Assembly: GCA_030280995.1 (NCBI GenBank)
Contig: JASXTE010000004.1
Coordinates: forward strand, 42,943,297 to 43,007,296
Length of the DNA: 64,000 bases
DNA from: Hemileia vastatrix
Taxonomy: Eukaryota; Basidiomycota; Pucciniomycetes; Pucciniales; Zaghouaniaceae
Direction of reading: 5' to 3'
Made by a program: the position numbers and the translations under genes. Position 1 is the stretch's first letter; each line of letters opens with the position of its first letter. Shown here in pieces: positions 17,281 through 45,763 of the stretch. The notes under the pieces are model-generated. The model was given only the letters and a program-made list of their open reading frames with translations. It did no database searches and was not told the origin of the DNA.

Positions 17281-17739
17281 TTATTTTTTTCATTCATATT
17301 TCATTTCAATTTTTTTTCAAAGCAAAAAGTTACACATTTTATTTGAAAGTTTGGAAATATCCCCCATGGCAATTTACTCTGGGAGGGGTAAAGGATTACC
17401 AAATTTTCATTTTATTTCATAAATAATTAAGTAATTTGATTAAAAGAGATAATCAACCAAGTAAAGGAATCCCAAATACTATCTGTCAATGATTTTATGA
17501 GTGAATTCAAAGAAAAAATATGACAAGAATGGTATTATGAACTCATTCATATAATATAATTGAATGAACACCTTTATACAGCAAAAGGGCTTGATGGTAC
17601 AATACTTAATTTGATTGATTATCTTTAATAACTGATAAAATTAAAAATTTAAGAAAAAAACAAAAATTTAAAAATCCTTTAATTACCATATTTAGAACCC
17701 CTCCCTAATGTTTTAGTGGATATTGACCCTTCATACCTT

Positions 17740-18528: not shown

Positions 18529-19369
18529 CACCACGCAATATAGGGGGGCGGAATTTCTAGCAAGTCTGTAACCTTGAACCCTAATTTATATCTAATTTAG
18601 CACACATTGAGGCAGTGATGAAAAAATCATGAAGAAACAATGGATTTACTTTGAAAAAACCTTGAAACTAATTTGAACCTTCATTGAACCACAGTTGGTT
18701 GATAGTTCAAAAAATATTTATACTTGAATTAGAGGATTTGTGAATGAATAAAAAAATGAATTCCACTATCAATCTAGCGTTGCAGCTTCATAAAATTTTG
18801 AAAAATTATACAGTTTTTTCATTTTTTGAACCTAATGAAATTCTCATATACTTTGAATGATAAGAGATTTCACAAAAATTAATAAGATACTAACCCTATT
18901 AATACATAGATAAATCATCCAATACTTTAAGAAATTATTCATTAAGAAATATTTATTGAATTTCTGTATTTCATCAATTTTTCATCAGTAAAAAATTGAG
19001 AAATAAATACCTTTTCTCATTATATCAATCAATATTATTAGTTATTTATGCATTTTCAAAACATTTGTGGAAGTTTAAACACTCAATAAAATAATTTAAA
19101 ATTAAATTTAGTTAATAGAACAATTTGTAAGATTTATTTACATCCCATATTTATATAAGTTAAAACAGGATATGGGACAAATTCAATTAAAAATATAGCT
19201 TATCATGATCTCCATTAAATCAAAAAAATAAAAAATCCATGGTTAATTAATATTGGAAAATAAATTTAATTTTTTTTTGGGATATTTCATGCCATTACGA
19301 TTTCAAAGTCTCATAATATATTTTATAGCTTTTGTGCTTAAATTTTTTCAAAATGGTCCTTACAAGTAC

Positions 19370-24324: not shown

Positions 24325-24523
24325 AGGGCGTATCAAAGTAAGAAATCTTTCATTTCAAAATACCTCTTTTTTCCCCCAAATCAAACATGATTATTTTTTA
24401 AAATATGCCATTATGTGCCCCAAAAACAGCTTCTTACTAAGAATTGATGTCAAGTTTGTGGCTTTTTTTTGCATTGCAAAATACCTTTAAAATAGTTACA
24501 AATTTCCAACTTTGATATCCCCT
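24325..24523 (+). mobile_element. 199-bp Harbinger-type MITE in element M
   Basis: Left end AGGGCGTATCAAAGTAAGAA, right end CAACTTTGATATCCCCT, duplication AAT (24322-24324 and 24524-24526). Same family as 1305-1504 and 54793-54992, with a few substitutions in the TIRs. Confidence 0.85.
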
Positions 24524-26319: not shown

Positions 26320-26768
26320 AATAGGGGGTATCAATGTTCAGGGATCCGCAATTAATTTAATTGCGGAAAATAATCTGCATACCCCAATTATATTCCACAA
26401 TTATTTTTGCTAACAATTGGGTTATTAGACACTTTACGTGTCAATGTTCACCTCTTATCTGACATTTTTTTACTCAATTTTTCATAACCACATCTTGGAC
26501 AACTTTCTGTCATAACCACATCTTGACCTACATTGTGCCATAACCACATCTTGGACTACTCACTGTATATGTATTCTACCTTTCTGTGCACTCCCATTAT
26601 CATCCCATACTGTTCATTCTATCTGCTCAGAACCCCTCACCATCTCATCTGCTTGTTTCTGCTCCTTTTCATCTCGCTATCTCATATGCTTGTTTCTGCT
26701 CCTTTTCATCTCTCTATCTCATCTGCTTGGTGTTTTCTGCTCCTTTTCATCTTCATTTATATTTTAAC

Positions 26769-28170
26769 ATGCCTTGTTGTCCTAGATCTTTTCAAGGGCA
26801 GCCATCACCCAGTTGTTCTTCAAATCCCACTACTCCCTCTTTCCCCCGCTCAGCCGAGAAATCTAAGACTGTTCAATTAAAAAAAGATGATCATCTCATT
26901 TTTATCAACTGGCTGAAAACCAAATCTAACTAAGATTCTTGTTTTGGTACTGAGTATGCAACTAAAGTAGGACACCCCCCAACATCAAAAGTTAATGGCT
27001 ATCTTCTAATGGCAAATGAATTACGGAATAAGACCAAGGGAAGGATTGATCTTTTGCCTAAACAGATGTCTGAACGCTTCAAGCATTACCAAGCCAAATA
27101 CAAGAAGGCAAAGGCTCTTTCATCTTCCACTGGTTTTGGGGTTACCGACATTGATATAAATAAGGGTATCAAATCCATAGACAATAAAATTGAATCTTTA
27201 TGTTCTTAATTTAAAGATATGGATGCAATTTTTTGAGAGCGAGCTGATGCTAATCATGTAGACATGTTGGATGGACAAGATCCTATCTCCAAACATGATG
27301 TTGAAGAAAATATTTTCCCATCCCCTTCCTCCACTCAAGCATCCCCTCATCTGAATGAGACAAATCTAGATAGCTTTTATGTAGATCCTATTGGTGATTT
27401 AACCTAACCAAATCTAACTCAGGTCTGTTTTTTTTCTTTTATTTTATCAATTCAATTTTTTTATTTACTTATCTTTTTCTTATTTCTTAAAAGGCTGACA
27501 AACAAACCCAGGATCCTCAATCAACTGAGTCTGAAGGTAGTGACAATGATGAGGAGGAAAATATGACCTTGAACAAGAAGTGTAGAGCTTCAAGTAGTAT
27601 AAATTTTGATTCCCAAAGAAGACAAAAAAGTGATACTTCATCACAAACCCCTTTTTTGTCTATGGAACAATTTTAAGAGAAACGTGATGCTGGTAAGTGA
27701 TACCATACCTATTATTACTTTACTCTGCTTTTCTTCTACTTTATATTACTTTTTATTATCACTCTTGAACAAGTGGAAATTGCTAAAGAGACTCTAAGCT
27801 TTGAAATGAAGAAATATGAGCTCTCTTTAAGGAGGGATGATAGGCTACAAGATTTGGAAGAGAGGAAGTATGAGCTCTCTTTACGGAAGGATGATCAGGC
27901 CCAAGATTTGGAGGAGAGGAAGTATGAGCTCTCTTTACGGAAGGATGATTGGGCCCAAGATTTGGAGGAGAAGAAGTTTGAGTTAACTCTAAGTATTGAA
28001 AAATCAAAAAAGAGGAGAAAACCCTTGAACATCAAAACCTATTAGAGCAGATGAAATATAAGTTTGATCATGAAGAAAATTCCAAAAAGAAAGATTTCTT
28101 GATAGAATGTGTTAAAGCTAATAAATATGTTGAAGAAATTGAACGTTCAAAGAAATTGTTGGATGACTAG
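26769..28170 (+). pseudogene. H2 SANT-like/coiled-coil partner protein
   Basis: Starts MPCCPRSFQGQPSPS. A conserved module (about 26870-27120) reads DDHLIFINWLKTKSN, then FGTEYATKVGHPP, SKVNGYLLMANEL and LPKQMSERFKHYQAKYKKAK, a SANT/trihelix-like layout seen in transposon partner proteins. After an acidic Ser-rich linker a coiled coil carries three 16-residue repeats of the type LRKDDxAQDLEERKYELS (27830-27975), and the protein ends IERSKKLLDD. Introns at about 27423-27494 and 27693-27770 have GT...AG ends. Four to five in-frame stops (for example after KTKSN) make this copy non-functional; the H3 copy reads through most of these sites. Confidence 0.8.
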
Positions 28171-28340
28171 TTTGTTTTATTTCTCTCACACTTCAACTGT
28201 TCATATTTATTTGTACTTAAAATTTACAATAATTTCATTTATTTCATTACTCTATCAATCATTATTTGAATTTTTGTATTTTAATGTTAAATATTCTTTT
28301 TTTAAATAAAATTTTCATGTCTCCTTTGAAAATTTGATGA

Positions 28341-28745
28341 TTTCCCACCCCTGCATTTTTTTGAAGTAAGGGGTGGGTATCACCAAAATTCTTTCATGTC
28401 ATGAATCTTGAAAGTCTTATATGAAAATTTGGCTTTACTACCCCCTGAATTTTACCGGTATCCCCAAAATTCTTACAAGTCAAGAATTTCACAAGTCTTA
28501 TAAGAAATTTTGGCAACCCCCCCCCCCCCCCTGGATTTTATTGAAGTAAGGGACGGGTTTCACCAAAATATTTACAAGTCAAAAATTTTACATGTTACAT
28601 TTGAGAATCTGGCAATACCCCCCCTAAATTTTATTGAAGCAAGGGGTGGGTATCACCAAAATTTTTACAAGTCTTCAATTTTGAATGTCAGATTTGAAAA
28701 TTTGGCAATAACCCCCCTGCATTGTATTGAAGTAAGGGGTGGAAG
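28341..28745. repeat. About 93-bp tandem repeats between convergent H2 genes
   Basis: Four to five units, each with a C-run, TTTTATTGAAGTAAGGGGTGGGT, then CACCAAAATTNTTACAAGTC. Each unit contains a short inverted repeat (CACCCC ... GGGGTG). They sit in the gap between the 3' ends of the SANT and TET genes. H3 carries the same array at 33476-33900, so it is part of the element. Confidence 0.8.
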
Positions 28746-29042
28746 TCATCTAAATTTAATATAATTACATAAATTATTAAATAAATATCTAATATATATC
28801 AATTTCCCTAGTTTAAAGTAATGGCAGTTCCACAAGCCAAAATGCAGATCAAATCTAGAAACAAAAGTTTGGGACTTTCCACAGGTATAGGCTAGAGGAG
28901 CCCCATGAAACAAATAAATGTTATCATGATTACCTGTTATACAACCAAAGGTCATTGGCTCATCACTTTTGTTGAGCAAATTGATATATAAAAAATATTT
29001 ATTAAAAATTTATGAAAAAATATAAAATTTTTGATGACAACT

Positions 29043-29665
29043 CTAATCACCATACTTTTTGGATCTAGATAAAGTTTTTTTAAATCGAGTAACTTTACCT
29101 TCTTTCTTTACCTTGTTGATTCTTTGAATCAACTTATGACTGATTTGAAATGAGCAACAAAAATGTGTGAAATCTTGACAGGATTCCAAACCAGGAGGAG
29201 CTTTGGTCATTTGATGATTATCCTGAGAGTAATTCCAAATTTTTTTGATGATACAATTTTCAAAACCAAAATCAATGATGCAATGGTGGTCTGGAAAATA
29301 TAAACCATGTCCTTTGATTTTAGCTGGAGATGGTATTGGTTGGCCAGTTATCAGATTGATATATGAGAATATACCAAAGGTAAGAAAATTAGCATCATTC
29401 CTATTGATATGAATGCTATTGTGGAATCCAGAATGAGTGATAATAACATTAGAAAATAAAAGATATTTGTGGGTGATATCTTCCCATTCGGAGTCACACC
29501 AATTTGGTATTCCAACTTTGGTTGAAAGTTCATGATTTTTTTCAAATGCTTTATTACAGAGCTTTTTGAATCAAAGAGCAAGAAAAGAGTTAAAGGAAGG
29601 TAGAGTGTCCTATAAGCAAAAATATTCATCTTTTTGAGCTTTAGTGATATTCTTGAGCAATGAAT
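29043..29665 (-). pseudogene. H2 TET/JBP-like dioxygenase, 3' exon
   Basis: Reads SLLKNITKAQKDEYF, then GIPNWCDSEWEDI, the HxD region SGFHNSIHINRNDANF (the metal-binding D of HxD is replaced by N here), GLYFPDHHCIIDFG, PPGLESCQDFTHFCCSFQIS and ends SRSKKYGD with TAG. Two early stops interrupt it. The exon begins at an AG acceptor now displaced to 35780 by the insertion of H3, so H3 landed just inside this exon. The 5' exons are at 35766-36515. Confidence 0.88.
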
Positions 29666-29749
29666 AGGGGGTATCAATGTTCAGGGATTCGCAATTAGGG
29701 ATCAGTAATTTTTTTTCCCGGGATCAGACATTATTAATTACGGAAGATT

Positions 29750-29781
29750 CTTATCCACTAGCCCCAGGGCTAGTGGATAAG
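29750..29781. repeat. 32-bp subterminal palindrome of H3
   Basis: A near-perfect palindrome with arms CTTATCCACTAGCCC and GGGCTAGTGGATAAG, 84 bp inside the transposase-side terminus. The equivalent position in H2 (45300-45330) has the same palindrome with compensating centre changes. It could be a binding site for the element proteins or a promoter hairpin. Confidence 0.75.
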
Positions 29782-29994
29782 AAATCCACGATAATGCATT
29801 ATCCCGCCTCTTATACCCCAATTTCCATTCCTAATTCCTGATGCCAAACTCATCTCATCCATAATGGATTTGCAAGAAAGTCACATGACTCATAATTGCT
29901 GATGCCATCCTTAAGTCTTTCCTCACTCTATGCTACTTAATTTTGGTGGCGAACACTTAAGTTTTTTTTCTATCTACACACCCCAACTGCACAT

Positions 29995-31308
29995 TTGGCG
30001 GTGAATTCCCACTTCCCTCATCACATAACCCTTCCACCAGCAACAATGAAACACCTCTCTACTAGAAGGCTACTTCACTCCACTATTAATGCCATCACTT
30101 TACTTTTAGTTCTCTACTATAAATCTGACTCTGATTTGGAAGATGCTTTAGCTTATATGTGTTTACTTTCCAAAAAGCGTTACATCATCACCAGGGGGCC
30201 AAATCTTTATCATGATCCCCGATATGATCTGGCCTCCATTCTCAACATTCCTCATTTAAACTTCACGCAACTTTTTAGAACTTCTCCCAATTCTTTCTTC
30301 AAACTTTATCAACTCATTTCTGAACATCCTATCTTCCATAACAATTCTCATAAAAAACAGCGTAATCCTGCCATCCAACTTGCTGTTGCTCTATGTGGCT
30401 TTGGCTCAAATGGAAATGGTGCTGCCGTAAGACGTTTGGATAATCTCTTTAACATAGGATATGGTACCGTGATATTATACACCAAGTGCTGTATGATTGC
30501 TATCCTTTCCCTCAAGTCTCAAACTCTTGCTTGGCCAACTCCAGAACAGCGACTTGAATCCTCTCAAGTAATGCAAGCTGAAGGTTTCACTGGCTGTGTA
30601 GGATTTGTTGATGGCACAGCTATACCTTTGAGTCAAAAGCCTGCTCATGATGGCAACCATTATTTTGATCGCAAAAAAAGGTTTCTTCCAAATCTTCTCC
30701 AAGTTCTCATCTTTTACAATCTAACTTTTTATTTTCTTTCTAGATACTCTATCGCCGTTCAACTTGTATGTGATGTCAATAAAAAATTTATTGCTTTTCA
30801 CAGTGGCTGCCCTGGATCATGTCATGACTCTTCCGTCTTCCAAAGAATGAGGATTTCTCAATCCCCTGACTCATACTTTGACGAATCTCAGTACCTCCTT
30901 GCAGACTCAGCATATGCAAGTGGAAAGTACATTATACCTGCTTTCCGTGGTGCAACTTCAGAAAATGACCCCAAAACTGCCTTTAATTATCACCTTGCAC
31001 AATCAAGAGTACGAATTGAACATGCTATAGGTATTTCAAAAGGATGATTTTCTAGTCTTTGGGAGCTCAGAATCCAATTTCAAAAAAAATTGGAGATCAA
31101 AACTGCAAATCATTGGATCTTGACTTGTGTAATACTCCACAATATTCTAGCTGATTTAAAGGATGAGTGGAATGATCTTTATGAAGAAGAGGATCCTGAA
31201 CCACCACCGGCACTCCCCTCCCTTGATTCACAAATCATTCAATCAACTGGCATACGTTCCATTATAATGCCAATTACTCTCCAACATTTCACTTTGCAAT
31301 GCTTTTAA
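29995..31308 (+). pseudogene. H3 PIF/Harbinger DDE transposase with one premature TGA
   Basis: The frame opens at 29995 (first ATG 30046). Numbering from 29995: a helix-turn-helix region (about 125-165, QLAVALCGFGSNGNGAAVRR); catalytic D206 in GFVDGTAIPL; D304 in LLADSAYASGKYIIP; E342 in RVRIEHAIG; plus the family motif PGSCHDSSVF. This is the DDE_Tnp_4 pattern of PIF/Harbinger. A 63-nt intron at 30681-30743 (GTTTCTTCC...CTTTCTAG) is in phase, and its removal restores DRKKRYSIAVQLVCD. A TGA at 31045-31047 follows ISKG; the frame then continues FSSLWELRIQF and IKTANHWILTCVILHN to a stop at 31306, the normal C-terminus of the family. All three catalytic residues lie before the TGA. Confidence 0.9.
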
Positions 31309-32535
31309 TTTTTAATTTTTACGTTTTCATACTTTCTAAATGTCCTCTTTGTGTACTTTATTCACTTGGTTTTGTATTTTGGTTTGTTGCATATTCATTT
31401 TTTTTTTTGAATTTACGGTGAAAATCTTTTTTTTGGATGGCTCATTGGTTTTCTTTCACCAGCTCAACATGAAATCGCATATTTTGTCAGTGATTTTTTT
31501 TATTCATCCCTCATATCCTTTTCCTATTCTCCTCCAACATCCCTCAAACAATTTGGTTTCATTCATTTTGTCATCTCATCTCTCCAGGTAAGTCATTTTA
31601 TTCTTTTTTTTTGATTTTTTGATTACTAATTATAATTTTTTTTTGTTTTTTTATGTTTATTTTATTTTTTTTATCTAAATTTTTTTTGTAAGTGGTTATT
31701 TTGGATTTCAATGGTATAATTAACATTTTTTTTCTCTCCCTCTTTACTTTATTTTTTAGCTCCATCACCTTACTCTTCATCCCTCCTTGGCATTGTCATT
31801 ATCCCCCCTTTCCCTTATTTCACTTTTTTTTGGCTCCATTTCATTGAAACACATACATTGAACATTCTTTATGCATTTCACTTACTCCATATTCAATTTC
31901 CCCACAATTCCAACATCAATCTTTCTCACTCTATTTTTCCTACTTTTCAATCAAGGTAAGTTTCATCTCCTTTTTTTCATGCCTATATGATATCTCATTC
32001 CTTTTATGAAAACTTCATACTTAAATATATGTATGACTCTTATCTGGATAACAGTGAACTTATAAAACTCCTTTTGATCTGATCTTCATTACCACTTTTC
32101 AAGTTTTTGTAAAATTTTGAAACTCAGACTCGGAATTAGGGTTAGGTTTATTCAAATCTAATGTTTTTTTTACTGAAGATTCTCCTGAAGGCTACCTTTC
32201 ATTTCCTTCAAACAGATTTGAATTTGATTCAGTGGTTGCTGAGATATTGACCGTTAAAGTTGAGCCTTTTTTTTCCCAATTTAAATTTTTATTTCATTTT
32301 TTTATGTAACAAATTAGGGTTAGGTTTATTTAAATCACATGTCCTTTAACTGAAGATTCTACTAAAGCATATCTTTCATTTCCCACAAATAGGTTTGAAT
32401 TAGGTTCAGTGGTTGCTGAGATTTTGACCTTTGAAGTTGAGCCTTTTTTCCAAATTTCACTTGTCTTATTTCACATTTTTATATTGCATATTTAGAGGAT
32501 AAGGATTCTGAAACTCTTATATGATTATTATCTAG
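31309..32535. other. H3 region between transposase and TET exon
   Basis: T/C-rich sequence (31590-31980) corresponds to part of the 3' flank of the transposase seen in H1 and H2. A block of about 150 bp starting TTAGGGTTAGGTTTATT and ending GTTGAGCCTTTTTT is present twice (about 32142-32275 and 32322-32450). The Ser-rich 5' exons of the TET gene and the purine arm of the hairpin, both present in H1 and H2, are missing here. Confidence 0.55.
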
Positions 32536-33164
32536 GCATATATTTGTTGGTCAAGAATATCACTAAAGCTCAAAAAGATGAAGATTTTTGCTTATGGGAC
32601 ACTCTACCTTCCTTTGACTCTTTTCTTGCTTTTCGACTCAAAAAGCTCTGTAATAAAGCATTTGAAGAAAATCATGAACTTGAAACCAAAGTTGGAATAC
32701 CGAATTGGTGTGACTCCAAATGGGAAGATATCAGCCAAGAATATCTTTTATTTTCTAATGTTATTATCACTCATTCTGGATTTCACAATAGGATTCATAT
32801 CGATAGGAATGATGCCAATTTTCTTACTTTTGGAATATTCTCATATATCAATCCGATAACTGGCCACCCAATACCATCTCCAGCTAAAATCAAAGGACAT
32901 GGTTTATATTTTCCAGACCACCGGTGCATCATTAATTTTGGTTTGGGAAATGGTTTCATCGAAACTATTTGGAATTCTTCTCAGGATAATCATCAAACGA
33001 CCAAAGCTCCTCCTGGTTTGGAATCCTGTCAAGATTTCACACATTTTTGTTGCTCATTTCAAATCAGTAATAAGTTGATACAAAGAATCAATAAGGTAAA
33101 GAAAGAAGGTACAGTTATTCGATTTAAAAAAACTTTATCTAGATCCAAAAAGTATGGGGATTAG
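32536..33164 (+). pseudogene. H3 TET/JBP-like 2OG/Fe(II) dioxygenase, last exon (intact frame, 5' exons lost)
   Basis: The exon starts after a TCTAG acceptor and stays open for over 200 codons to TAG at 33162. Residues counted from 32544: a conserved segment GIPNWCDSKWEDIS (51-64); NVIITHSGFHNRIHIDRNDA (72-91) holding the HxD metal motif H85/D87; FGIFSYINPITGHPI (96-110); GHGLYFPDHRCIINFG (118-133); candidate second metal ligand H150 in DNHQTT; CCSFQISNKLIQRI (169-182). This pattern matches the fungal TET-like 2OG-FeII oxygenase family, whose animal members oxidise 5-methylcytosine. No ATG precedes the conserved core and the 5' exons of H2 are not found upstream, so this copy probably lacks its start. 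Lies in the same orientation as the transposase and convergent with the SANT gene. Confidence 0.85.
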
Positions 33165-33475
33165 AGTTGTCATCAAAAATTTTATATTTTTTCATAAATT
33201 TTTAATAAATATTTTTTATATATCAATTTTCTCAAGTAATGTGATGAGCCATTGACCTTTGGTTGTATAACAGGTAATCATGATAACATTTATTTGTTTG
33301 ATTTGTGAGGTTCCTCTTGCCTATACCTGTAGAAAGTCCCAAACTTTTGTTTCTAGACTTGGTCTGCATTTTGGCTTGAGGAATTGTCATCACTATAAAC
33401 TAGGGAAATTGATATATATTAGATATTTATTTAATAATTTATGTAATTATATTAAATTTAGATGACTTCCACCCC

Positions 33476-33900
33476 TTACTTCAATAAAATGCAGGGGGGG
33501 GGTATTGCCAAATTTTCAAATCTGACATGTGAAATTGATGACTTAGAAAAATTTTGGTGATACCAACCCCTTGCTTCAATAAAATGCAGGGGAGAGTATT
33601 GCCAATTTTTTAAAACAGATATAGAATTTTTTTGACTTGTAAATATTTTGCTGAAAATTTTTTGGTGATACCCATCCCTTACTTCAATAAAATTCATGGG
33701 GTTTTTCGCCAAAATTTCTTATAAGACTTGTGAAATTCTTGACATGTAAGAATTTTTGGGATACCAGTAAAATGCAGGAGGTAGTAAAGCCAAATTTTCA
33801 TATAAGACTTTCAAGATTCATGATATGAAAGAATTTTTGTGATACCCACCCCTTACTTCAAAAAAATTCAGGGGTGGGGGATTGTCAAATTTTCAAAGGA
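33476..33900. repeat. About 93-bp tandem repeats between convergent H3 genes
   Basis: Inverse copy of the array at 28341-28745: units with ACCCCTTACTTCAATAAAATGCAGGGG and AAATTTTTGGTGATACC. Four to five units, located between the TET and SANT 3' ends. Confidence 0.8.
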
Positions 33901-34013
33901 GACATGAAAATTTTATTTAAAAAAAGTGGGAGAGTAATGAAATAAAGGAAATTATTTGAAATTTTATGTACAAATAAATATGAACAGTTGAAGTGTGAGA
34001 GAAATAAAACAAA

Positions 34014-35414
34014 CTAGTCATCCAACAATTTCTTTAAACGTTCAATTTCCTCAACAGATTTATTATCTTTAACACATTCTATCAAGAAATCTTTCTTTTT
34101 GGAATTTTCTTCATGATCAAACTTATATTTCATCTGCTCTAATAGGTTTTGATGTTCGAGTGTTTTCTCCTCTTTTTTTGATTTTTCAATACTTAGAGTT
34201 AACTCAAACTTCTTCTCCTCCAAATCTTGGGCCCAATCATCCTTCCATAAAGAGAGATGGTACTTCCTCTCCTCCAAATCTTGGGCCTGATCATCCTTCC
34301 ATAAAGAGAGCTCGTACTTCCTCTCTTCCAAATCTTGTAGCCTATCATCCCTCCTTAAAGAGAGCTCATATTTTTGCTTTTCAAACTTTAGAGTCTCTTT
34401 AGCAGCTTCCACTTGTTCTAGAGTGATAAGCAATGTTAACAATAAGTAAAAGAAAAGCAGAGTAAAGTATTAATAGGTATGATATCACTTACCAGCATCA
34501 CGTTTCTCTAAAAACTGTTCCATCGAAGAAAAAGGGGTTTGTGATGAAGTATCACTTTTTTGTCTTCTTTGTGAGTGGAAATTTAGACTACTTGAAGCCC
34601 TACGCTTCTTGTTCAAGGTCATATTTTCCTCCTCATCATTGTCACTAGCTTCAGACTCAGTTGATTGTGGGTCTTGGGCTTGTTCATCAGCCTTTTAAGA
34701 AATAAGAAAATCTAAGTAAATAAAAAAAAGTATTGATAAGATAAAAGAAAAAAAACAGACCTGAGTTAGATTGGGTTGGGTTAAATCGCCAATAGGATCA
34801 ATAGCAAAGCTATCTAGATTCGTAGAATTTAGAAGAGGGGAGGCTTGAGCGGAGGAAGAGGATGGGAAAATATTTGCTTCGACATCATGTTTGGAGATAG
34901 GATCTTCACCAACCAACATGTTTACAGGATTAACATCGGCTCGCTCTCCGAAAATTGCATCCATCTCTTTAAAGTAAGGACATAAAGTTTAAAGTTTATT
35001 GTCTATGGATTTTATGCCCTTAGTTATATCGTTGTCGGTAACCCCAAAACCAGTGGAAGATGAAAGAGCCTTTGCCTTCTTGTATTTTTCTCAGTTATGC
35101 TTGAATCGTTCAGACATCTGTTTAGGCAAAAGATCAATCCTTCCCTTGGTCTTATTCCGTAATTCATTTGCCATTAGAAGATAGCCATTAACTTTTGATG
35201 CGGGGGGCCGTCCTACTTTAGTGGCATACTCAGTACCAAAACAAGAATCATAGTTAGATTTGGTTTTCAGCCAGTTGATAAGAATGAGATGTTCATCTTT
35301 TTTTAATTGAACGGTCTTTTATATCTCAGCTGAGCGGGGGAAAGAGGAAGTAGTGGGAGTTGAAGAACAACTGTGTGATGGCTGCCTTTGAGAAGATCTA
35401 GGATGACGAGGCAT
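34014..35414 (-). pseudogene. H3 SANT-like/coiled-coil partner protein, nearly intact
   Basis: Start ATG at 35414 (MPRHPRSSQRQPSHSCSS). The module DEHLILINWLKTKSNYDSCF, ATKVGRPPASKVNGYLL and LPKQMSERFKH (about 35305-35085) is open where H2 has a stop. A long linker (34964-34760) includes FGERADVNPVNMLVGEDP. After an intron near 34690-34760 comes DPQSTESEASDNDEEEN, then a second intron (about 34425-34490) and the coiled coil with three 16-residue repeats (34395-34220). It ends IERLKKLLDD at 34014. Three stops remain: after RSAEI, after FKHN, and after SIDNKL. Role inferred: DNA-binding partner of the Harbinger transposase. Confidence 0.8.
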
Positions 35415-35765
35415 GTTATTATAAATGAAGATGAAAAGGAGCAGAAACAAGAAGATGAGATAGCGAGATGAAAAGGAGCAGAATCAAATAGATGAAATGG
35501 GGAGAAATTCTGAGCCGATAGAATGAACAGGATGGGAAGAGAATGGAAGTGTGTAGAAAGGTAGAAGGCTGGGATATCCAGAAAGTTGTCCAAGATGTGG
35601 TTATCAAATATTGAGGATAAAAATGTCAGATAAGAGGTGAAAATTGACACGTAAAGTGTCTAATAACCCAATTATTAGCAAAAGTAATTGCGGAAGATAA
35701 TTGGGGTATGCAGATTATTTTCCGCAATTAATTTAATTGCGGATTGGTCAACATTGATACCCCCT

Positions 35766-36515
35766 AATATATGCCTATATAATTGAAATAAGTGAAATGA
35801 TATTAAGAATGGAAAAAAAATTATTATACTTACCAAGAGAATATCCTTTAACAAAATCAGGTCTCCAACCAAATCCAATCATGATACCACCCAACAAATT
35901 CATATTCCTTATAAGTAACCAATCCAAAGCCATTTGATAAAGAGTTATGATAAGATCGGATAGTTGATTAAAAGATTCATCTTTTACACCATCAAATGAA
36001 TGAACTTCCAAAATGAATTGAGCTTTATAAGTATTACTGATAACTGCAACAACTCAATCATCTCCAAATTTGGTTAGATATTTGATATCTTCTGGTAATT
36101 TTTTTGGATATTGATTTTTTTATCTACTTTAGTTTTATGAAAAAAAAGGTTTGGGATATGATAAAAAAAACTTTCACAGAGAATTTTTTTTTCAGATATC
36201 TTTTCTTCTGATTAGACTGATTATCTTTAATTTTTATTGATGATTTAGAAGATGAATTTTTTTTCAGAGATCTTTTCTTCTGATGAGACTGATTATCTTT
36301 AATTTTTTTTGATGATTTAGAAGAAGAATTTTTTTTTTCAGATATCTTTTATTCTGATAAGACTGATTATCATTAATTTTTTTTGATGATTTAGAAGATG
36401 ATTGTATTGAAGTTGATTTTGAAGAAGATGATAGAGATGATAAAGATGAAGATGATAAAGAGGATAAAGATAAAGATGATAGAGAAGTAAGGGGTGAATC
36501 TGAAGAAGAAGACAT
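35766..36515 (-). pseudogene. H2 TET/JBP-like gene, 5' exons
   Basis: Begins at 36515 with a Ser-rich N-terminus (MSSSSDSPLTSLSSLSLSSL, then Lys-rich). A later exon (about 36035-35840) reads AQFILEVHSFDGVKDES, then LGGIMIGFGWRPDFVKGYSL. Its donor GTAAGT (35839) and acceptor ATATAG (35781-35786) define an intron; only the first bases of the next exon remain before H3 cuts at 35768, and the exon resumes at 29662. A 75-bp unit encoding part of the Lys/Ser-rich region is repeated three times (about 36185-36400). The conserved N-terminal block is shared with H1. Confidence 0.78.
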
Positions 36516-37019
36516 TTTTTTGATCTGAAAAAAATTTAAATGTCAAAAAAAAATTCAACACATTTTTTTTAAAAAAAACTCACCTAATAATATCTTTTAA
36601 TATAAAATTTAAAGCAAAATCCTTTTAAAAAAAATTTAAAAAAAATTTTTAAAAAAAATATATATACAATAATTTTCAGTAAAATTTATTTCAAAAAAAA
36701 ACAATACAAAAGAAATCCTGAAGTTTGGTTATAAAAAACCTTCACAGAAAATCCTGAAAAAATAATTTAAAAAAATAAATAAATAAATAAATATAATCAG
36801 TAAAAGAAAAATCAAAACAAATAAATTAAATTAAAAAAAATTTAATTTAGTAAAATTTTTTGGAAGAAAAATTAAAAATTAAAATCTAAACCTTTTTTGT
36901 TTTGTAATTTACAGGGAAAGACCTTAACAGAATGTAAAAGATTTTTTTTTTCTAAAATTCTGCCAAAAAAAAAAAGAAAAAAATTACAAAAAACAAATTT
37001 TTAGTATGTCTTTTAGAAA

Positions 37020-37557
37020 GTAGGTAACCCCTCTTTAACTGCCATAAAATTCACCTTTCCCCCCCTTATTTATCTGAAATCCCCTATAAAATCCCTCCCT
37101 CCTTGACTCAAAACCCCCCTCAAATCCCCTCCTTGCCTGCCTCAAAATCCCCCCTTTCCCCCCTCCTTAATTGCCTCAAAACCCCCCAAACCCCCCCTTT
37201 ACCCCTCATTATATGTCCCAAACCCCACTCTTTCCCCCCCTCTTTAGCCGCCTCAAAGGCCCCCCCTTTTAGGTCCCCCCCCTTATTGCTAACAATCGTT
37301 TTTTAAGGAGGAGGGGCTAGAGGTGGTTTAAGGGGACCTAAAAGGGGGGGAAGGGGGGATTCGAGGTGGCTAAAGAGTAGAGAAGGGGGGAGTGTTGAGG
37401 CACCTAAAGAGAGGGAAAGGGGGGTCATGAGGCGCCTAAAGACAGGGGAAGGTGGGGTCATGAGGCACCTAAAGAGGGGGGAAAGGGGGGATTTGGGACA
37501 GGTAAAGAGGGTGAACTAAGGGGGACATGAGGAAGGTAAAGAGAGGGAGAAGGAGTG
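37020..37557. repeat. Polypyrimidine/polypurine hairpin of H2
   Basis: C/T-rich arm with CCCCCCC runs (37025-37290), centre AACAATCGTT, then an A/G-rich arm (37300-37557) that continues after the solo LTR (38740-38830). H1 has the matching structure at 58300-58990 between the same two genes. The 37103-37306 ORF is a by-product. Confidence 0.8.
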
Positions 37558-38734
37558 TGTCAGTATAGTCTAGTATATAAGTATGATATAATAGTGTTTA
37601 TTTATGGTCCTACTACTTATTGATAAATGATTTAGTGATTAAACCTCAGGGGAAGACTAATAAAATAGTTATACTCAAATAAAACTCACAATACTTGGAT
37701 TTCAGTGCGTGCTAGTGGTGGAAAATAGATGAATAAAATATAGTTATAGCTTATATAAAGATAATATCAATTTATAATGGCTTTATAATATATTTCTAAA
37801 TGTTAATAATTGTATAGTAGTGTTTGTTGGAGTTGTAGTAATTGAATGATGATAAATAACCGTCGAAATCCCTCCTTACTTATACCCAAATCCACTGGAG
37901 TGCACAGACCTTCAATCCAGATGATGTCACTGCTATCCCCAGCAATTACAGCACTGTGAGGGCCCATCACCTCCCCATGGCGTCCACTTCAAGCAGTTTC
38001 AATACCCAGACCTCCAGTAGGGACCCTCCATCACTATTAATAATAACATAGGTCTATACCATAAATAGAAAATCCAGATAAAAGTGGATACCATAAAGAA
38101 ACAGGTAAAATAAACAGTCAAAAAGAGATTTAATGAAACTAAAAGCATATAAAGGAAACAAATAAAATTTCCAATCCCCCAATAACATCCCCAAGCATCC
38201 ACATTAACCCAAAAACATCCTTCCAACCCATAAATCCGTGAATAACCATCCAAGGAAGTAATTTTAGTTGTCCAAACTGGGTGTATGCGCCTGATATAGG
38301 TGTCTATGCTTCTGTAGGCGTTGTGAGTCCACTGATTTCGTCCATATGACCTAAAATAAGCAGAAAAACAAAGGTTATAGGCTATTAAGGGGCTAAAACC
38401 CACTTATATACCTAACTATACATAATATACTGCATATTTCACTGAATATGAGATTTATGTATACATATAAGCTTATGTATGTCAATAATTACTTCATATC
38501 ACTTAAGATAAGTATATTATGACTCCATCAACACCTTAATAAATATTATTAGGCCATGGATAAGCTATTTAAATTATTATAAGTTATATAATAGAATAAT
38601 AATTATATATATATATAATAAAATAATATATATTATTATTTTAACCTTATTTTTAAGATATAAGCTTAATCTACTTAAGGTTATCTTATTTTAAGCATAA
38701 GAAATACTCAGTCCTAAGGATATTTAAGCTGACA
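37558..38734. repeat. Solo LTR (1177 bp) in the purine arm of the H2 hairpin
   Basis: Begins TGTCAGTATAGTC, ends TTTAAGCTGACA, and is flanked by the exact 5-bp duplication GAGTG (37553-37557 and 38735-38739). No internal retrotransposon sequence. Termini are inverse complements over TGTCAG, so orientation cannot be set. It is distinct from the gypsy-1/2 LTR. Confidence 0.9.
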
Positions 38735-39032
38735 GAGTGACTTGAGGCAGGTAAAGAGAGAGGAAAAGTGGTGAAATGAGGCAGCTACAGAGAGTGAAGG
38801 TGAGAAAGAAAAAAGAAAAAAAAAGAGAAAAAAATTAGTCTAACCTTGAAAATAAAAAAAGAGGACTTACAAAAAAAAAAAAAAAAAAAGCAAAAAAAAA
38901 AATTCATGATTAGCAAATAAAAAACAAGAAAAAAGAAAAAAAAAGACTTATCTGGTGAGATGAGTAGAGAAAATAAAATTAAACAAAATATTTGAGTGAT
39001 GTTTGAGGAGAGGATGAAAAGGATATGAGTGA

Positions 39033-42000
39033 CACAGGGGGGAAAAAAGGAGGACTGGTAGGCGAGTCATTTTTTTGAATTTTGGACTAACCTTGTTGTA
39101 ACCTGGTTATATTTCTGGGTAGGATTAAACTCATCTTTTTTACATATTTTTGATGCTATATACAGGTCTGATGCATGATAAAAGTAAAGAAGTTTATCTC
39201 ATTTCTTTAAAATAGACCATTATTAATTTTTTCAATTTCATTTCTTAATATATGTTCTGATAATTTTTTTTATTAATTTATATCAAATTTTTGGCCACTT
39301 TAAAATATTTTTATTTTGATTATTATAGACTTCTTAAGTTCCAAAAAATATTTATATTTGTTCAACTCTTTTTTTACACATATTATCTGGTTCAAATTTC
39401 CATACTATATGTACTTCAATCCACTTCCACATAATGAAATATTGAAATATGTAGAAAATTAAAAATAATTAGTACAAAGTAAAAATTATTGCTCAAATTT
39501 AATGAAAAAATATTTATTTATCATCTAAATTTTATATCCATTATTCATGAATAATGAAAGAAAATATTGGCCAGATTCCATAGGCATATTAAATTTTTTT
39601 TTAAATTTATGTCATTTTTAATATAAATTTTCAACAAGAGTGGATGATTTCTTTCCCATTCTTTGAGGCCCATTTTTTATTTTTTGACCTCAGGTAGATT
39701 AATCAAAGAAAATCTACCCCCCTTAGTTATAAAATCTTTCTCCACTCACTCTTTGTGCTCCACTAATAATAAAACCAAAAAAACCTTGAAAGCATTTATT
39801 GTATCCTATTTTGTACTCTTATATACACTCCATTCTATATGTTTAACTATCATCCCCCAGTGTGTCCTCTTCAAGATGCATAAATCCCATACATTTTTTT
39901 TTGCAAAGATCACACTTCCCCAATTTTTCACTGTCTTGAATTCCCTGTTCTACCCCCCAAATCCTATTTTTTCTGCTTGAATTACCCCCCACTTCTTTAC
40001 AATCCCTCATTTACCCCTGCAAAGATCTTTTTTTCACCCTCAGGATCCCTATTGCACCTCTACATTTTACGTTTTTCTCCACCGGCCTTTCCCATCTTTC
40101 CCCCCATAAATCCTTCTTGTCACCAAGTTACACTCTCACACCTCCACATTTTATGGTAAAAGTTCTTTAGAAACTCTTTTTTTCATTTGGCCTGATGTCT
40201 TATACCACCCCTCTAAAGTATTTTGTACTTACTCATGTAAAGTTTCAAGTCACATGCATCAAAGTGTTGCAGCATCACTTAGCTGCACGGGATCTCAGTT
40301 TTTTTCCTCCCCTTCACTCAAAAAATTGACTCTGGGCCTTGAAAACACAAGTCAGGTGCAGGAAAGTGTCCCGGCGACACTTCCTTGCACGTGACCTCAG
40401 TATTTTCATTGCACTTTTTTCTTCTCTTTAACTCAGTGCATTAGTAAACTGAATCACATATAATTTAATGTTTCTAAAGACCTTTTTTTAATGAAACTGG
40501 GGGGATGTAAGGGACTGTGTAAGACAGTAGAGTGAAGGGAAAAATATTGGGTGGGGCAAGGGGCTAGTATAGAAAATGAGTAATTTCAGAGGATGAAAAA
40601 GACAATGAGTATTGTTATAAATAAATTTAAAAGGAGGGCTTGTAGGGAAAAAAAGGAAAATTGATAGAGAAGGAGGGGGTTCAAGAGGTAAAAAAATTTG
40701 TGTAAGTAGAAGAGATTTAACACCCCATTGAGTAACTCAAGCGCCAGCAGGGGGGCACCTGCAGGGGCAAAAGAGGGGATTAAAAAGGGAAAAAAGGAGG
40801 ATACAGAGCTGTTACAGGAATTTTAAAAGTGATTTCTTCCTCCGCATATTTAATTTAAATAGTAAAGACATTATATAGAAAATTTAATTTAAGACTACCC
40901 AATACAATGATTCATTTTTTTAAAAAAAATTTTGCCTTAAAGATAAAGTATTTTCCCGGTATATGTATTTTGGAAAGACTATCATTTAATAAAAAAATTT
41001 CTAAGCTGACTGAATGTTTGAAAAACATTTTTGAATTCACCTTATATAATTCTTCACCTCATATTCCATTTTTTTCATCCACCAAAAAAAATAAATAAAT
41101 AGAGGTGATGAATTATCACCACAAAATTGTTAAAAAAACTTAACAAATGTAAATATTTTATTGGTACAAACAAAATGTGATGCATCAACTACATCAAGAT
41201 GCCTTAATTTATGATTTATGCAGAAGTAATAGTAGAACTTGTGAATTCTGATAAGCAAAAATTTCTGAGTTAGGTAAAAATAATTTGAAAAGGAGAAAAA
41301 AGGAAAAAATAATATAAAATAAATGTGGCAAAAAATTAGTGAACACCATATCTAGCACTTCAAAACATGGGGAAAAAAATTTAAATAAATCAATTTTTTA
41401 CAATTAAATCCTCAAAATCACTTGTTACACTAACTTTAAACAAGATATTGGTATCAAAAGCATGTCACATACTGAAGTTTATTAAAGAGTTAAAAATGCA
41501 AGATGAGAAAAACAGAAAAACCAAACTTAATAGAAAACAAAGAAAAATTGAAAGTGAAAAATTGCTAATGAGTCTATTACTTTATAAAAATCTTTTTAAA
41601 ATATTCCATTAAATTTAAAGAATTTAATGTGGTAAGATATTGTAGTTTTTTCCACTTTTATTTTTCAGAATAATTTGCAAAAAAAAAAATTTCTGAATCA
41701 TCAAGGGGATAAGTATGTTTATTTTTCTCATTTTTCAAAAATCAACAACTAATATGATTTTTTTTTCTAAAAAAATGTCATTTCAGGTCACAATTATTTT
41801 TTTTTACAAAATTTGATGTATGATAGATATAAAATCCTGAATAAAAAGCTGTAGTTATTTTTTTGTAAAAAATATTTTTTGGGGATATAACATCTTTCTT
41901 TTTTTTCCTACCTCTGTAATAGAAGACATAGCAGTTGAATCATTGCACCAGATAATTAAATATATATTTATAAATTAAAAATTCATGATCAGAACTATAA

Positions 42001-42479
42001 TATTCTTTTACAGCTCCTCATGCACAAAATAAGTAGATAATCAATATTTTATATAAAATTTAATAAATTTTTATCATAAATTCATTTTTAATAAAGATGA
42101 TCAATAAATACTGAAAATGAAATGTGCATCAAAGTTTAATATGTCCTTTACATCTATATAAAATATTTATTGTGTGTCCATGAAATATGTTCAGTATGAA
42201 TATATTTTGATCATTTTATATGGATATTTATATAACTATAGTATGTCTCTTTTAAGATATGCAAGATTCATCAACATTGAAAAAAGAATTAATTTATTTT
42301 CTTCCTTCTTGAGGTCATGATTTCAAGGAACAAAAAGAGGGAGGAAGTAGAAAAGAATTTTCAAAATATTTACTTGAAATTTTTCCACTCATACCCACCC
42401 CTACAATATTACTTCAAAGATTACTCCAGAAGACCTGAAAAATGACTTGATTGCAAGTCCTCATTTTTTCCCCCCTGTG
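39033..42479. mobile_element. Non-coding TIR element K (3447 bp, CMC-like)
   Basis: TIRs CACAGGGGGGAAAAAAGGAG and the inverse of CACAGGGGGGAAAAAATGAG, with the exact 3-bp duplication TGA (39030-39032 and 42480-42482). The empty site is visible in H1 (around 59250) and H3 (around 31500), where GATATGAG continues directly into GGATGAATAAA. It carries no recognisable gene. A C/T-rich block and an A/G-rich block form another skewed hairpin. TIR start CAC and 3-bp duplication are like O and M, but the TIR sequence differs. Confidence 0.85.
39660..40800. repeat. Polypyrimidine/polypurine hairpin of element K
   Basis: C/T-biased sequence (39660-40200) and A/G-biased sequence (40490-40800) around a centre near 40340. 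The centre has two related small hairpins, one around 40257-40275 (AAGTGTTGCAGCATCACTT) and one around 40362-40384 with arms AAGTGTC and GACACTT, each followed by TGCACG and a GACCTCAG or GATCTCAG motif. Confidence 0.6.
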
Positions 42480-42671
42480 TGATGAATGAAAAAAAAAATC
42501 ACTGACAAAATATGTGATTTCATGTTGAGCTGGTGAAAGAAAACCAATGAGGCATCCAAAAAAAAGATATTCACTGTAAATTCCAAAAAAAAGTGAATAT
42601 GCAACAAACCAAAATACCAAACAAAGTGAATAAAGTACACAAAGACAAAATTTGGAGAGTACGAAAAATAT

Positions 42672-43987
42672 TTTAAAAGGGTGGTGAAGAGAAATGTTGG
42701 AGAGTAATAGGCATAATGGCAGAGCGTATGCCAGTTGAATGAATGTTTTGTGATTCAAGGGAGGGGAGAGCTTGTGCTGGTTCAGGATCATCTTCTTCAT
42801 AAAGATCATTCCACACATCCTTTAAATCAGCTAGTATATTGTGGAGTATAATTCAAGTCATGATCCAATGATTTGCAGTTTTGATCTCCAATTTTTATTT
42901 GAAATTGGATTCTGAGCTCCTGAAGACTAGAAAATCATCCCTTTAAAATACCTATAGCATGTTCAATTTGTACTTTTGATTGGGCAAGGTGATAATTAAA
43001 GGCAGTTTTGGGGTCACTTTCTAAACTTGCACCACGGAAAGCAGGTATAATGTACTTTCCACTTGCATATGCTGAGTCTGCAAGGAGGTATTGAGATTCG
43101 TCAAAGTATGAGTCAGGGGTTTGAGAAATCCTCATTTTTTGGAAGACAGAAGAGTCATGAAATGAGCCAGGGCAGCCACTACAAAAAGCAATAAATTTTT
43201 TATTGAAATCACATACAAGTTGAACGGCAATAGAGTATCTAGAAAGAAGATAAAAAATTAGTTTATGAAGGATGAGAAATTGGAGAAGATTTTGAAGAAA
43301 CATTTTTTTGAAATCAAAATAATGGTTTCCATCATAAGCAGGCTTTTGACTCAAAGGTATAGTTGTGCCATAAACAAATCCTACACAGCCAGGGAAACCT
43401 TCAACTTGCATTACTTGAGAGGATTCAAGTTGCTGTTCTGGATTTGGCCAAGCAAGTGTTTGAGACTTCAGGGAAAAAATAGCAATCATACAGCACTTGG
43501 TGTATAATATCACGGTACCATATCCTATGTTAAAGAGATTATCCAAAAATCTTACAGCAGCACCGTTTCCATTTGAGCCAAAGCAACATAGAGCAACGGC
43601 AAGTTGGATGGCAGGATTATGCTGTTTGTTATGGCAATTGTTATGAAAGATAGGATGATTGGAGATGAGTTGATAAAGTTTGAAGAAAGAATTGGGAGAA
43701 GTTCTAAAAATTTGGGTGAAGTTTAAATGAGGAATGTTGAGAATGGAGGCCAGATCATATCGGGGATCATGATAAAGATTTGGCCCCCTGGTGATGATGT
43801 AACACTTTTTGGAAAGAAAACACATATAAGATAAAGCATCTTCCAAATCAGAGTCAGATTTATAGTAAAGAACTAAAAGAAAAGTAATTGCATTCATTTT
43901 TAAGTGAAGTAGCTTCCTAGTAGAGAGGTGTTTTATTGTTGCCGGTGGAAGGGTTATGTGATGAGGGAAGTGGGAATTCACCGCCAA
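42672..43987 (-). pseudogene. H2 PIF/Harbinger transposase, catalytically dead
   Basis: Same protein as H3 (same positions and nearly same length), followed by the C-terminal part to about 42672. The first catalytic Asp is lost: GFVYGTTIPL replaces GFVDGT. The second Asp (LLADSAYASG) and the Glu (QIEHAIG) remain. The TGA after ILKG is at the same codon as in H3. The element end is at 45413, about 1.4 kb upstream, including the X insertion. Confidence 0.88.
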
Positions 43988-44178
43988 ATGTGCAGTTGGG
44001 GTGTGTAGATAGAAAAAAAATTTAGGTTTTTGCCACCAAAATTAAGTAGCATAGAGTGAGGAAAGACTTAAGGATGGCATCAGCAATAATGAGTCATGTT
44101 ACTTTCTTTCAAATCCATCATGGATGAGATGAGTTTAGGATCAGGAATTAGGAATGGAAATTGGGGTATAAGAGGCGG

Positions 44179-45273
44179 TGTAGACAATCCTATAGTACTA
44201 GCTTTAGGCCTTGACCAAGGGAGTTGGAGAAAAACCAGAGAGAAAATCCCCTGTCCCTTTAGAAAAATAGAGTGAGATTTACTTGCTAAAGTGAGTTGGT
44301 TCCTTTTTTGCTAAAGCTCCTTTTCAACACACTTGACTGCTTGATGAGCCAAGAAAGTAGTCACCAGATAGACTACCAGACCAAAGAACTGAAATGTAGA
44401 ACAAAGTCCACACCAGAGACAGCAAAGATACTTGATGTAGGCTGCAAATCCACACCAGAGACAGCAATAATACTTGCTATAGCTTGCAAGACTATAACAG
44501 AGAAAATAGTTGCCAAAGTTAAGTTAAATGAAGAACTTACTTGCAACAAACACAGCCAATTGTGGCCAGAAAACAGTGAAAACTGAGTGAGGAACAATGA
44601 TATCACCTCCGGATGGTTGTATGATGATTAAGGTTGCCCCAAACTGTCTTATTCACTATGAACACACAGACCACTAACTAAGAGCCCATGCGCACCCACC
44701 AATCTGGCACCTGTACCCGCCAAATTGCATAAAAAACCCTCCTGGAGCGCTCCCCAACCTCCTAAAACAGAGGCTGGCGGGCCGCCCAACGTCGGAGATG
44801 CCACCTGAAGCAGCCCGGCCTCCCTGAAGCCAGAAAACTAATAAAAACAACTAATCTACTTTGAAAAATTAGCTACAACTACTAAAACCTTTAAAACACG
44901 GAATTTCACTATAACAACATTGTGACATGAAATATATAGAGAAAAATTAGCTCTATCCAATGGTACTAAGCACTTAACCCTAAGGCTTAAGGTTAGCCCG
45001 TAAAACAAGAAAAACAAAATTAAACAGCAATCTTTTATAAATGAAAAATGAGTAAATGACCCCTTAAAACTTAGAATATGAAAAATGTCTTCTAGACATA
45101 AAATATAGAGAAAAACCAGGGCTATCCAATGATAGTACACACATACCCTCAGACCCAATATCCATGGAATAAAACCAGAAAAATACCCAATTCCTTAACA
45201 GATTTCAATTAAGACATGCACAAACAGCGCCAAATAACACAACAAAGGCCCCTGCCAATGTTGGAAGACCACA
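44179..45273. mobile_element. Element X, copy 1 (1095 bp; solo-LTR-like)
   Basis: Begins TGTAGACAATCCTATAGTAC and ends TTGGAAGACCACA. The 4-bp duplication GCGG (44175-44178 and 45274-45277) flanks it. The uninterrupted site is seen in H3 near 29805 (CCCGCCTC, inverse GAGGCGGG). Matches 52677-53707 over its length. TG...CA ends suit a solo LTR, but no internal region is known here, so the class is open. Confidence 0.85.
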
Positions 45274-45299
45274 GCGGGATAATGCATTATTGTGGATTC

Positions 45300-45330
45300 C
45301 TTATCCACTAGTCCCGCGCTAGTGGATAAG
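45300..45330. repeat. Subterminal palindrome of H2
   Basis: Arms CTTATCCACTAG and CTAGTGGATAAG; counterpart of 29750-29781 in H3. Confidence 0.75.
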
Positions 45331-45413
45331 AATCTTCCGCAAATAATAATGTTGGATCCCAGGAAAAAAAATTCCTGATCCCTAATTGCGGATCCCTGAA
45401 CTTTGATACCCCC

Positions 45414-45763
45414 TAATATATAATTTTAATTAATTAAATTTTAATTCCATTATAATTTTAATTTTTCAATTGTGATTATAATATAAATTTACAAATAATT
45501 AATTATCAATTTATTAATATTAAATGCATAAAAAATATACCATGATTTATAGAATATGATATATAATATGTTTGGTGTAAGTGTATAAATCATTTATTTA
45601 ATAATAAAATTAATATAATACTTATTTTACTTATTTTAATAAAATTTTTATATAATTTTATGATGTAATAAAAAATTATTTTAATTGCATAAAATACATC
45701 ACTTTATTCCCTCCAATAAAATATTATACATTTTACTGGGCTCTTCAGACAGCCTGGCTGACA
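45414..45763 (-). repeat. 3' LTR of gypsy-2, proximal part
   Basis: Starts (minus strand) TGTCAGCCAGGCTGTC at 45763 directly after the polypurine tract GAGTGAGGGAG, and is cut by H2 at 45414. Continues at 26319. Confidence 0.9.

What the first reader, a model, noticed from the sequence alone, without database searches (positions are those of the whole stretch)
29666..35765. A Harbinger family that carries a TET/JBP-like DNA dioxygenase as a standard gene
Seen: H3 and H2 each have, between matching TIRs and exact 3-bp duplications, a PIF/Harbinger DDE transposase, a SANT/coiled-coil gene and a TET/JBP-like 2OG-Fe(II) dioxygenase, in the same order and orientation. H1 fits the same layout as far as it is in the window. 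Known: TET/JBP expansions in fungi have been linked with KDZ-type transposons, and autonomous Harbingers usually carry only transposase plus a Myb/SANT protein. Inference: a cytosine-oxidising enzyme in the element could remove host methylation from its own DNA or mark target sites, a self-demethylating mobile element. I cannot say from memory whether the Harbinger link has been reported.
Basis: partly seen in the sequence, partly recalled or inferred. Interest (0 to 1): 0.92.

Follow-up and report, generated by a model that had tools for sequence, protein, structure and literature searches.

The report
Jumping genes carrying a TET-like gene
A large family of cut-and-paste mobile elements, in what looks like a rust-fungus genome, carries besides its transposase a gene related to enzymes that erase DNA methylation; this pairing was published in late 2025, but this family duplicates a different target site, has swapped the gene between sub-lineages and has a young branch that spreads without it.

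Summary
Both copies are decayed. H1 has TET and third gene but no detectable transposase.

The host assembly (748 Mb, unnamed) holds many relatives. Of 20 stretches fetched around strong TET hits, 17 have the transposase in the same layout and the other 3 have the third gene in place. Starting from the transposase, 9 of 21 sampled close relatives have TET; 12 belong to a young form without it.

TET is old in the family (four subgroups; dN/dS 0.09-0.31 between them) and exchangeable: transposase and third-gene trees join A1 with A2, the TET tree joins A1 with B, and AU tests reject the alternatives.

The Harbinger-TET link is in print (Kojima 2025, PMC12730594: 'PHISTA', TA duplications). Here the duplication is 3-bp AWT (15 of 15 elements, plus an empty site).

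Self-demethylation is plausible but unproven; CpG decay is strong in TET+ and TET- copies alike.

The parts
29666..35765 (+). H3: TET+ Harbinger element, 6100 bp, nested in H2
   Evidence: TIR pair and AAT duplication; fetched relatives L029, L022, L025 share the layout
29666..29677 (+). H3 left TIR (AGGGGGTATCAA)
35754..35765 (-). H3 right TIR
29663..29665 (.). 3-bp target duplication AAT (its twin is 35766-35768)
   Evidence: the empty-site alignment is gap-free at the junction only if AAT is the duplication
30046..31293 (+). H3 transposase (DDE_Tnp_4); homology to 31293, in-frame stop at 31045
   Evidence: E 4.4e-17; tblastn of L022 transposase 92% over 451 aa
32496..33164 (+). H3 TET-like dioxygenase, C-terminal part; N-terminal part missing
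   Evidence: PF20515 E 2.6e-27; no TETn match inside H3
34014..35414 (-). H3 third gene: possibly Myb/SANT-like N-terminus plus coiled-coil-like part (by eye), interrupted by stops
26323..45414 (-). H2: older TET+ element of the same subgroup, interrupted by H3
   Evidence: ends 26323-26334 and 45403-45414, AAT/AAT
42682..44041 (-). H2 transposase
   Evidence: DDE_Tnp_4 E 1.2e-15
29079..29666 (-). H2 TET, C-terminal part (PF20515)
35817..36218 (-). H2 TET, N-terminal part, cut off by the H3 insertion
   Evidence: 72% to L022 TETn
26850..28143 (+). H2 third gene
15438..18531 (-). H1 remnant: one TIR, third gene 15812-17024 (+), TET 17736-18531 (-); no transposase found
1305..1504 (.). 200-bp MITE with the family's TIRs, AAT/AAT
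24325..24523 (.). 199-bp MITE, AAT/AAT
54793..54992 (.). 200-bp MITE, ATT/ATT

Best explanation
H3 and H2 are decayed copies of a very large PIF/Harbinger-type family. The DDE transposase, probably with the third protein as its DNA-binding partner, moves the element by cut and paste into 3-bp AWT sites, and presumably also mobilises 200-bp MITEs with the same ends (shown: anatomy, TIRs, duplications; inferred: division of labour and mobilisation). The TET-like enzyme is an old, selected cargo gene that most likely oxidises methylated cytosine and so counters silencing of the family (inferred). It probably acts in trans as well as in cis, because the cassette has been exchanged between sub-lineages and because a young branch spreads without it (exchange and loss shown; trans action inferred).
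For: PF20515 matches and HxD plus distal His. In 20 of 20 TET-centred stretches TET lies beside another gene of the family, with the transposase in layout in 17. TIR plus AWT duplication around the three genes in 11 elements and around 4 MITEs. Purifying selection on TET between subgroups, dN/dS 0.09-0.31, against 0.09-0.16 for the transposase. Reciprocal tree conflict and a mosaic DNA pattern. Recent copies with long open TET frames: L018 and L027 are 96.5-98.5% identical to L019 over their main aligned pieces. A strong CpG-transition bias suggests that the elements are methylated.
Against: 12 of 21 sampled close relatives lack TET and include the youngest copies seen. No clear difference in CpG decay between TET+ and TET- pairs. 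The position where a 2-oxoglutarate-binding Arg is expected (alignment to human TET2, recalled) holds His in 20 of 22 copies. No expression or methylation data.
Confidence: 0.62

Rival explanations
1. Passenger: TET was captured once and rides along without helping the element.
For: A young TET-less branch amplifies; no clear protection from CpG decay.
Against: dN/dS 0.09-0.31 between subgroups with dS above 1, replacement of the cassette, and long open frames in recent subgroup B copies are not expected of a passenger.
Confidence: 0.15
2. The TET-like protein acts in transposition itself, for example by marking donor or target DNA with oxidised bases, rather than against silencing.
For: Fixed position and strand relative to the transposase: 13 of 13 listed pairs within 9 kb are on one strand (strands compared by eye) at offset 3695-4403.
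Against: TET-less copies have moved recently (many near-identical copies at different places; right end with AWT beside it seen for L031 and L033), unless TET works in trans.
Confidence: 0.1
3. The enzyme has another substrate or product (6mA, a 5mC adduct as in CMD1, or RNA).
For: His in place of the usual Arg in 20 of 22 (the equivalence is recalled). Kojima names CMD1 among the structural relatives of the Pucciniomycete type and says other activities cannot be excluded.
Against: The strong CpG bias of decay suggests where methylation lies in these elements.
Confidence: 0.12
4. Chance neighbours: TET genes belong to other elements inserted nearby.
For: Nesting occurs: H3 in H2, and what looks like a second element inside L012.
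Against: Same order, strand and similar spacing at independent places; TIR plus duplication enclose all three genes in 11 elements. Three TET-less copies compared with L022 lack the block between transposase and third gene.
Confidence: 0.01

Closest known systems
TET+ Harbinger families, 'PHISTA' (Kojima 2025, PMC12730594; sections read, passages)
   Same: Harbinger-type transposase, TET/JBP dioxygenase and a third protein between TIRs; reported in six Pucciniales including Austropuccinia psidii; TET- relatives cluster with TET+ in Puccinia; TET moves between transposon lineages; the same anti-silencing idea.
   Different: Kojima reports TA duplications and a third protein without Myb/SANT. 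Here the duplication is 3-bp AWT (15 of 15 plus an empty site) and the third protein has a weak, sub-threshold Myb/SANT-like match. Kojima discusses exchange between superfamilies; here it is between sub-lineages of one family in one genome. His sequences (supplement) could not be read, so identity with one of his families is not excluded.
KDZ transposons with TET/JBP (Iyer et al. 2014; recalled, and as cited in PMC12730594)
   Same: Fungal DNA transposons carrying a TET/JBP gene.
   Different: The transposase here matches DDE_Tnp_4, the PIF/Harbinger type, not KDZ.
Canonical PIF/Harbinger and Nuwa (Han et al. 2015, PMC4482050; seen in the listing, and as described by Kojima)
   Same: DDE transposase, 3-bp duplication, a second protein, MITE derivatives (recalled).
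   Different: Extra TET gene; duplication AWT rather than the usual TWA (recalled).

Membership tests
PIF/Harbinger (PHIS) transposon | DDE_Tnp_4 transposase | tested here: met
   E 4.4e-17 H3, 1.2e-15 H2; 6.1e-25 L022, 8.3e-25 L019
PIF/Harbinger (PHIS) transposon | TIRs and a 3-bp target duplication | tested here: met
   15 of 15 elements with both ends have identical AAT (8) or ATT (7) (dropped pairs told in the full report); empty site
PIF/Harbinger (PHIS) transposon | Myb/SANT partner protein | tested here: inconclusive
   PF13837 E 0.0021, 0.013, 0.025, 0.44 in 4 of 4 open copies, 0.041 and 0.038 in 2 of 5 window pieces (TelA scores better, 0.017, in one of these), all under cut-off; PDB searches empty; weak model without fold match
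PHISTA (Kojima 2025) | TA dinucleotide duplication | tested here: not met
   The base beside the invariant TA agrees on both sides in 15 of 15; the empty site aligns without gap at the junction only for AAT
PHISTA (Kojima 2025) | TET/JBP gene plus transposase plus third protein | tested here: met
PHISTA (Kojima 2025) | transposase inside the PHISTA clade | not testable with these tools
TET/JBP dioxygenase | Tet-like 2OG-Fe(II) domain | tested here: met
   PF20515 E 3.7e-18 to 3e-32, 2.8e-06 for an H1 piece; 150 of 150 scored genome hits over cut-off, 0 of 14 control genomes
TET/JBP dioxygenase | HxD and distal His iron ligands | tested here: met
   H272 in 21 of 22 (1 gap), D274 in 20 of 22 (1 gap, 1 Asn in H2), H337 in 22 of 22
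TET/JBP dioxygenase | 2-oxoglutarate-binding Arg | tested here: inconclusive
   The position judged equivalent (recalled TET2 alignment) is His in 20 of 22, Arg in 1, Asn in 1
TET/JBP dioxygenase | oxidises 5-methylcytosine | not testable with these tools
   needs an assay

The most novel reading that the evidence does not exclude
The TET gene is a shared good of a transposon community: TET+ sub-lineages maintain and trade it as a module, it oxidises methylated transposon DNA in trans, and TET-less siblings (the young A1 branch, and MITEs) exploit that activity and out-amplify the carriers.
Probability: 0.25. Interest if true: 0.78.

Novelty: new variant of a known kind. Interest (0 to 1): 0.5.

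Why it matters
Whether mobile elements carry enzymes that undo host DNA methylation is an open question in genome defence. This genome holds TET+ and TET- versions of nearly the same element side by side, many of them recent. That makes the anti-silencing hypothesis, and the public-good version of it, directly testable with methylation and expression data. It also shows a 3-bp target-site rule for this TET+ Harbinger family, unlike the published TA rule, and TET exchange inside one family with statistical support.

Tried and rejected
AlphaFold of the H3 TET from window sequences alone: mean pLDDT 33, not used. The third-protein fragment: pLDDT 60, helical, no Foldseek match at E 0.001. PDB sequence searches gave no relevant match. 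The protein database search found nothing at E 0.001. Host identification failed. I considered a 2-bp TA duplication, chance adjacency and plain conservation of TET as explanations; the first two are contradicted. The third is contradicted by the tree conflict and by the lower synonymous distance of TET than of transposase between A1 and B: 1.1-1.5 against 2.0-3.2.

Weak points of my own counts. The TET-centred 20 were picked by hand from the 150 best hits; the transposase-first 21 come from the 110 best non-window hits (11 at even steps, then 10 more). Both favour intact copies. Subgroups were named after seeing identities, so the AU p-values are post hoc. H2 falls nearer to A2 than to the rest of A1 in the transposase and third-gene trees. 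The L012 third-gene row in that tree probably comes from a second element in that stretch, and the L012 third gene that fits the layout is a 26-aa match only. For six TET-less copies (L047-L052) about the first kilobase after the transposase was not fetched; they match L030 or L031 at 98-99.8% over long stretches of the fetched window, except one flank of L049 at 90%. 'First-look candidates' (10,849 TET by PF20515; 19,635 transposase; 13,799 TET with the L022 query; 14,516 third gene) are not copy numbers.
Full report
WHAT IS THERE. In the window, H3 (29666-35765) is bounded by AGGGGGTATCAA ends and an AAT duplication. It carries a DDE_Tnp_4 transposase and a Tet-like 2OG-Fe(II) oxygenase domain on one strand and a third gene on the other. 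H2 has the same content between its own ends at 26323 and 45414; H3 sits inside H2's TET gene, whose parts are at 29079-29666 and 35817-36218. H3's transposase is cut short, its TET lacks the N-terminal part, and its third gene has stops. H1 keeps the third gene and TET; no transposase match was found for it. Three MITEs of about 200 bp with the same ends lie in the window.

THE FAMILY IN ITS GENOME. The window lies in an unnamed 747,610,610-base assembly of 791 contigs. I take it to be a rust fungus from low GC, the PF20515 expansion and 17 contigs of 10-71 Mb whose lengths I saw; this is inference. PF20515 gives 10,849 first-look candidates, of which 150 were scored and all 150 pass the cut-off; it rings in 0 of 14 control genomes. 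The H3 transposase gives 19,635 candidates, with 111 scored, all at 94-100% identity including the window copy. These are not copy numbers.

TET FIRST. I fetched 20 ten-kb stretches around TET hits, chosen by hand from the 150. By tblastn, 18 of 20 hold a homologous transposase; in 17 it is on the TET strand and upstream. In L016 the match lies on the wrong side, and L010 and L028 have none. At least one third-gene match is present in 19 of 20 (not in L014); in L012 and L020 the match that fits the layout is short. Each of these 20 TETs therefore sits beside at least one other gene of the family. Both ends with the three genes inside were found for 8 of the 20.

TRANSPOSASE FIRST. From the 110 best non-window transposase hits I examined 21 copies. 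TET is present in 9 (L029, L035, L036, L038, L039, L046, L053, L054, L055) and absent in 12 (L030-L034, L037, L047-L052). The three TET-less copies that I compared with the TET+ element L022 (L030, L031, L034) match it on both sides at 91-96% but lack a block of about 2.7-3.0 kb that holds TET. The first six TET-less copies are 94-99% identical to one another; the later six match L030/L031 at 98-99.8% over most of the fetched length. TET+ pairs within A1 range over 84-97%. Independently, 13 of 111 listed transposases have a listed TET within 9 kb, all on the same strand at +3695 to +4403, and 18 of 145 listed third genes have a listed TET 2.3-2.5 kb inside them; these are lower bounds, since the lists are capped.

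TARGET SITE. I paired TIR-like ends without regard to the duplication. Taking for each element the best-matching outer pair, 15 elements (11 with genes, 4 MITEs) have an identical AAT (8) or ATT (7) on both sides. Not counted: five pairs without a matching duplication (H1's end with the end of the MITE at 24523; weaker inner pairs in L018, L019, L021 and L027), a second outer pair in L026, and cross pairs between H2 and H3. If the duplication were only TA, the next base would agree by chance in about half of the cases. The H3 insertion in H2, compared with H3's own TET, is gap-free at the junction only when AAT is removed; TA or no removal leaves a 3-base gap.

SUBGROUPS AND CASSETTE EXCHANGE. 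Identities to reference copies: A1 (H3, H2, L022, L023, L025, L029) and A2 (L009, L012, L017, L024, L028) share transposase at 70-89% (85-89% without the much decayed L024) and third gene at 78-89%, but their TETs are only 57-61% identical. A1 and B (L010, L011, L013, L015, L016, L018-L021, L027) share TET at 76-82% but transposase at 55-68% and third gene at 48-58%. Trees agree: A1+A2 has support 100/100 for transposase and 100/99 for the third gene; A1+B has 100/99 for TET. Holding A1+B together is rejected by the transposase (p-AU 3e-5) and the third gene (0.001), and holding A1+A2 together is rejected by TET (0.0013) (groups named from the same data beforehand). At the DNA level L022 and L019 are 79% identical over 1,601 bp around TET and 69% in the transposase; L022 and L017 are 89% in the transposase, 67% in TET and 79% at the third gene.

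SELECTION. Between subgroups dN/dS is 0.09-0.31 for TET (12 copies, four subgroups), 0.09-0.16 for the transposase and 0.25-0.35 for the third gene (6 copies each; A2 not included). Within subgroups it ranges higher (0.21-1.89), as expected of copies that decay after insertion (Nei-Gojobori with large dS, so rough).

DOES IT PROTECT ITS OWN DNA? CpG observed/expected is lower in the more decayed copies: H3 0.36, H2 parts 0.19 and 0.23, H1 0.08. In pairs with under 3% other changes, CpG transitions per site are 5-18 times other changes in TET+ subgroup B (4 of 28 pairs qualify), 11-19 times in TET+ A1 (2 of 3 pairs of partial windows) and 4.6-29 times in TET-less copies (15 of 15). So the elements appear to be methylated, and carrying TET shows no clear lasting protection. 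The pairs are few, not independent, and not matched for age. The pooled ratios (13.5 and 12.5 for TET+, 38.8 for TET-less) point the way that protection would predict, but the TET-less set is much younger and CpG sites saturate, so I give them no weight.

CATALYTIC RESIDUES. In 22 aligned TET copies the HxD His is present in 21 (1 gap), the Asp in 20, and the distal His in 22. The position that I judge equivalent to the 2-oxoglutarate Arg (by recalled comparison with human TET2) is His in 20, Arg in L022 and Asn in one. This may mean altered co-substrate binding; it needs a structure.

KNOWN OR NEW. Kojima 2025 (PMC12730594; abstract, methods, first of three parts of the results, section 3.4, first of two parts of the discussion, figure legends and passages read; supplement not available) reports TET+ Harbinger families in six Pucciniales, including A. 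psidii, names the lineage PHISTA for TA duplications, states that the third protein has no Myb/SANT domain, reports TET- relatives and transfer of TET between superfamilies, and proposes escape from methylation. I did not see in the parts read: a 3-bp AWT site, exchange between sub-lineages of one Harbinger family, or a recent TET-less burst. In four paper searches I saw no other report of a Harbinger-TET link among the listed titles and abstract openings (20 of 202, 20 of 284, 15 of 73 and 12 of 272 papers listed). By its target site this family fails PHISTA's defining feature; whether Kojima's families have been read one base differently cannot be told here.

VERDICT. A real, abundant, TET-carrying Harbinger family: a variant of a kind published months ago. 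TET is an old, selected, exchangeable but dispensable cargo. Anti-silencing is the likeliest role, and action in trans would reconcile selection on TET with the success of TET-less copies.

Noticed in passing
window 7486-11712 (-): Open Copia-like polyprotein frame of 1408 aa (named by eye, no profile search) with CpG observed/expected 0.71, the highest of the 13 stretches measured: probably a recent retrotransposon insertion.
   Followed up: no
window 59719-63998 (+): Gypsy-like gag-pol frames reaching the window end (named by eye), GC about 0.41.
   Followed up: no
window 3635-3916 (-): Isolated TET fragment, about 49-60% identical to the family's TETs.
   Followed up: no
window 58984-59612: Fragment 72% identical to the H3 stretch around and just downstream of the transposase end.
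   Followed up: no
L031:1-606 and L030:1-1440: The spacer that replaces TET in TET-less copies contains repeated hairpin-like units (GAAGAACAGAGTTC and its complement), perhaps a small fold-back element.
   Followed up: no
A1 alignment column of L019 residue 354: His in 20 of 22 TET copies where an Arg would be expected by recalled comparison with TET2.
   Followed up: partly
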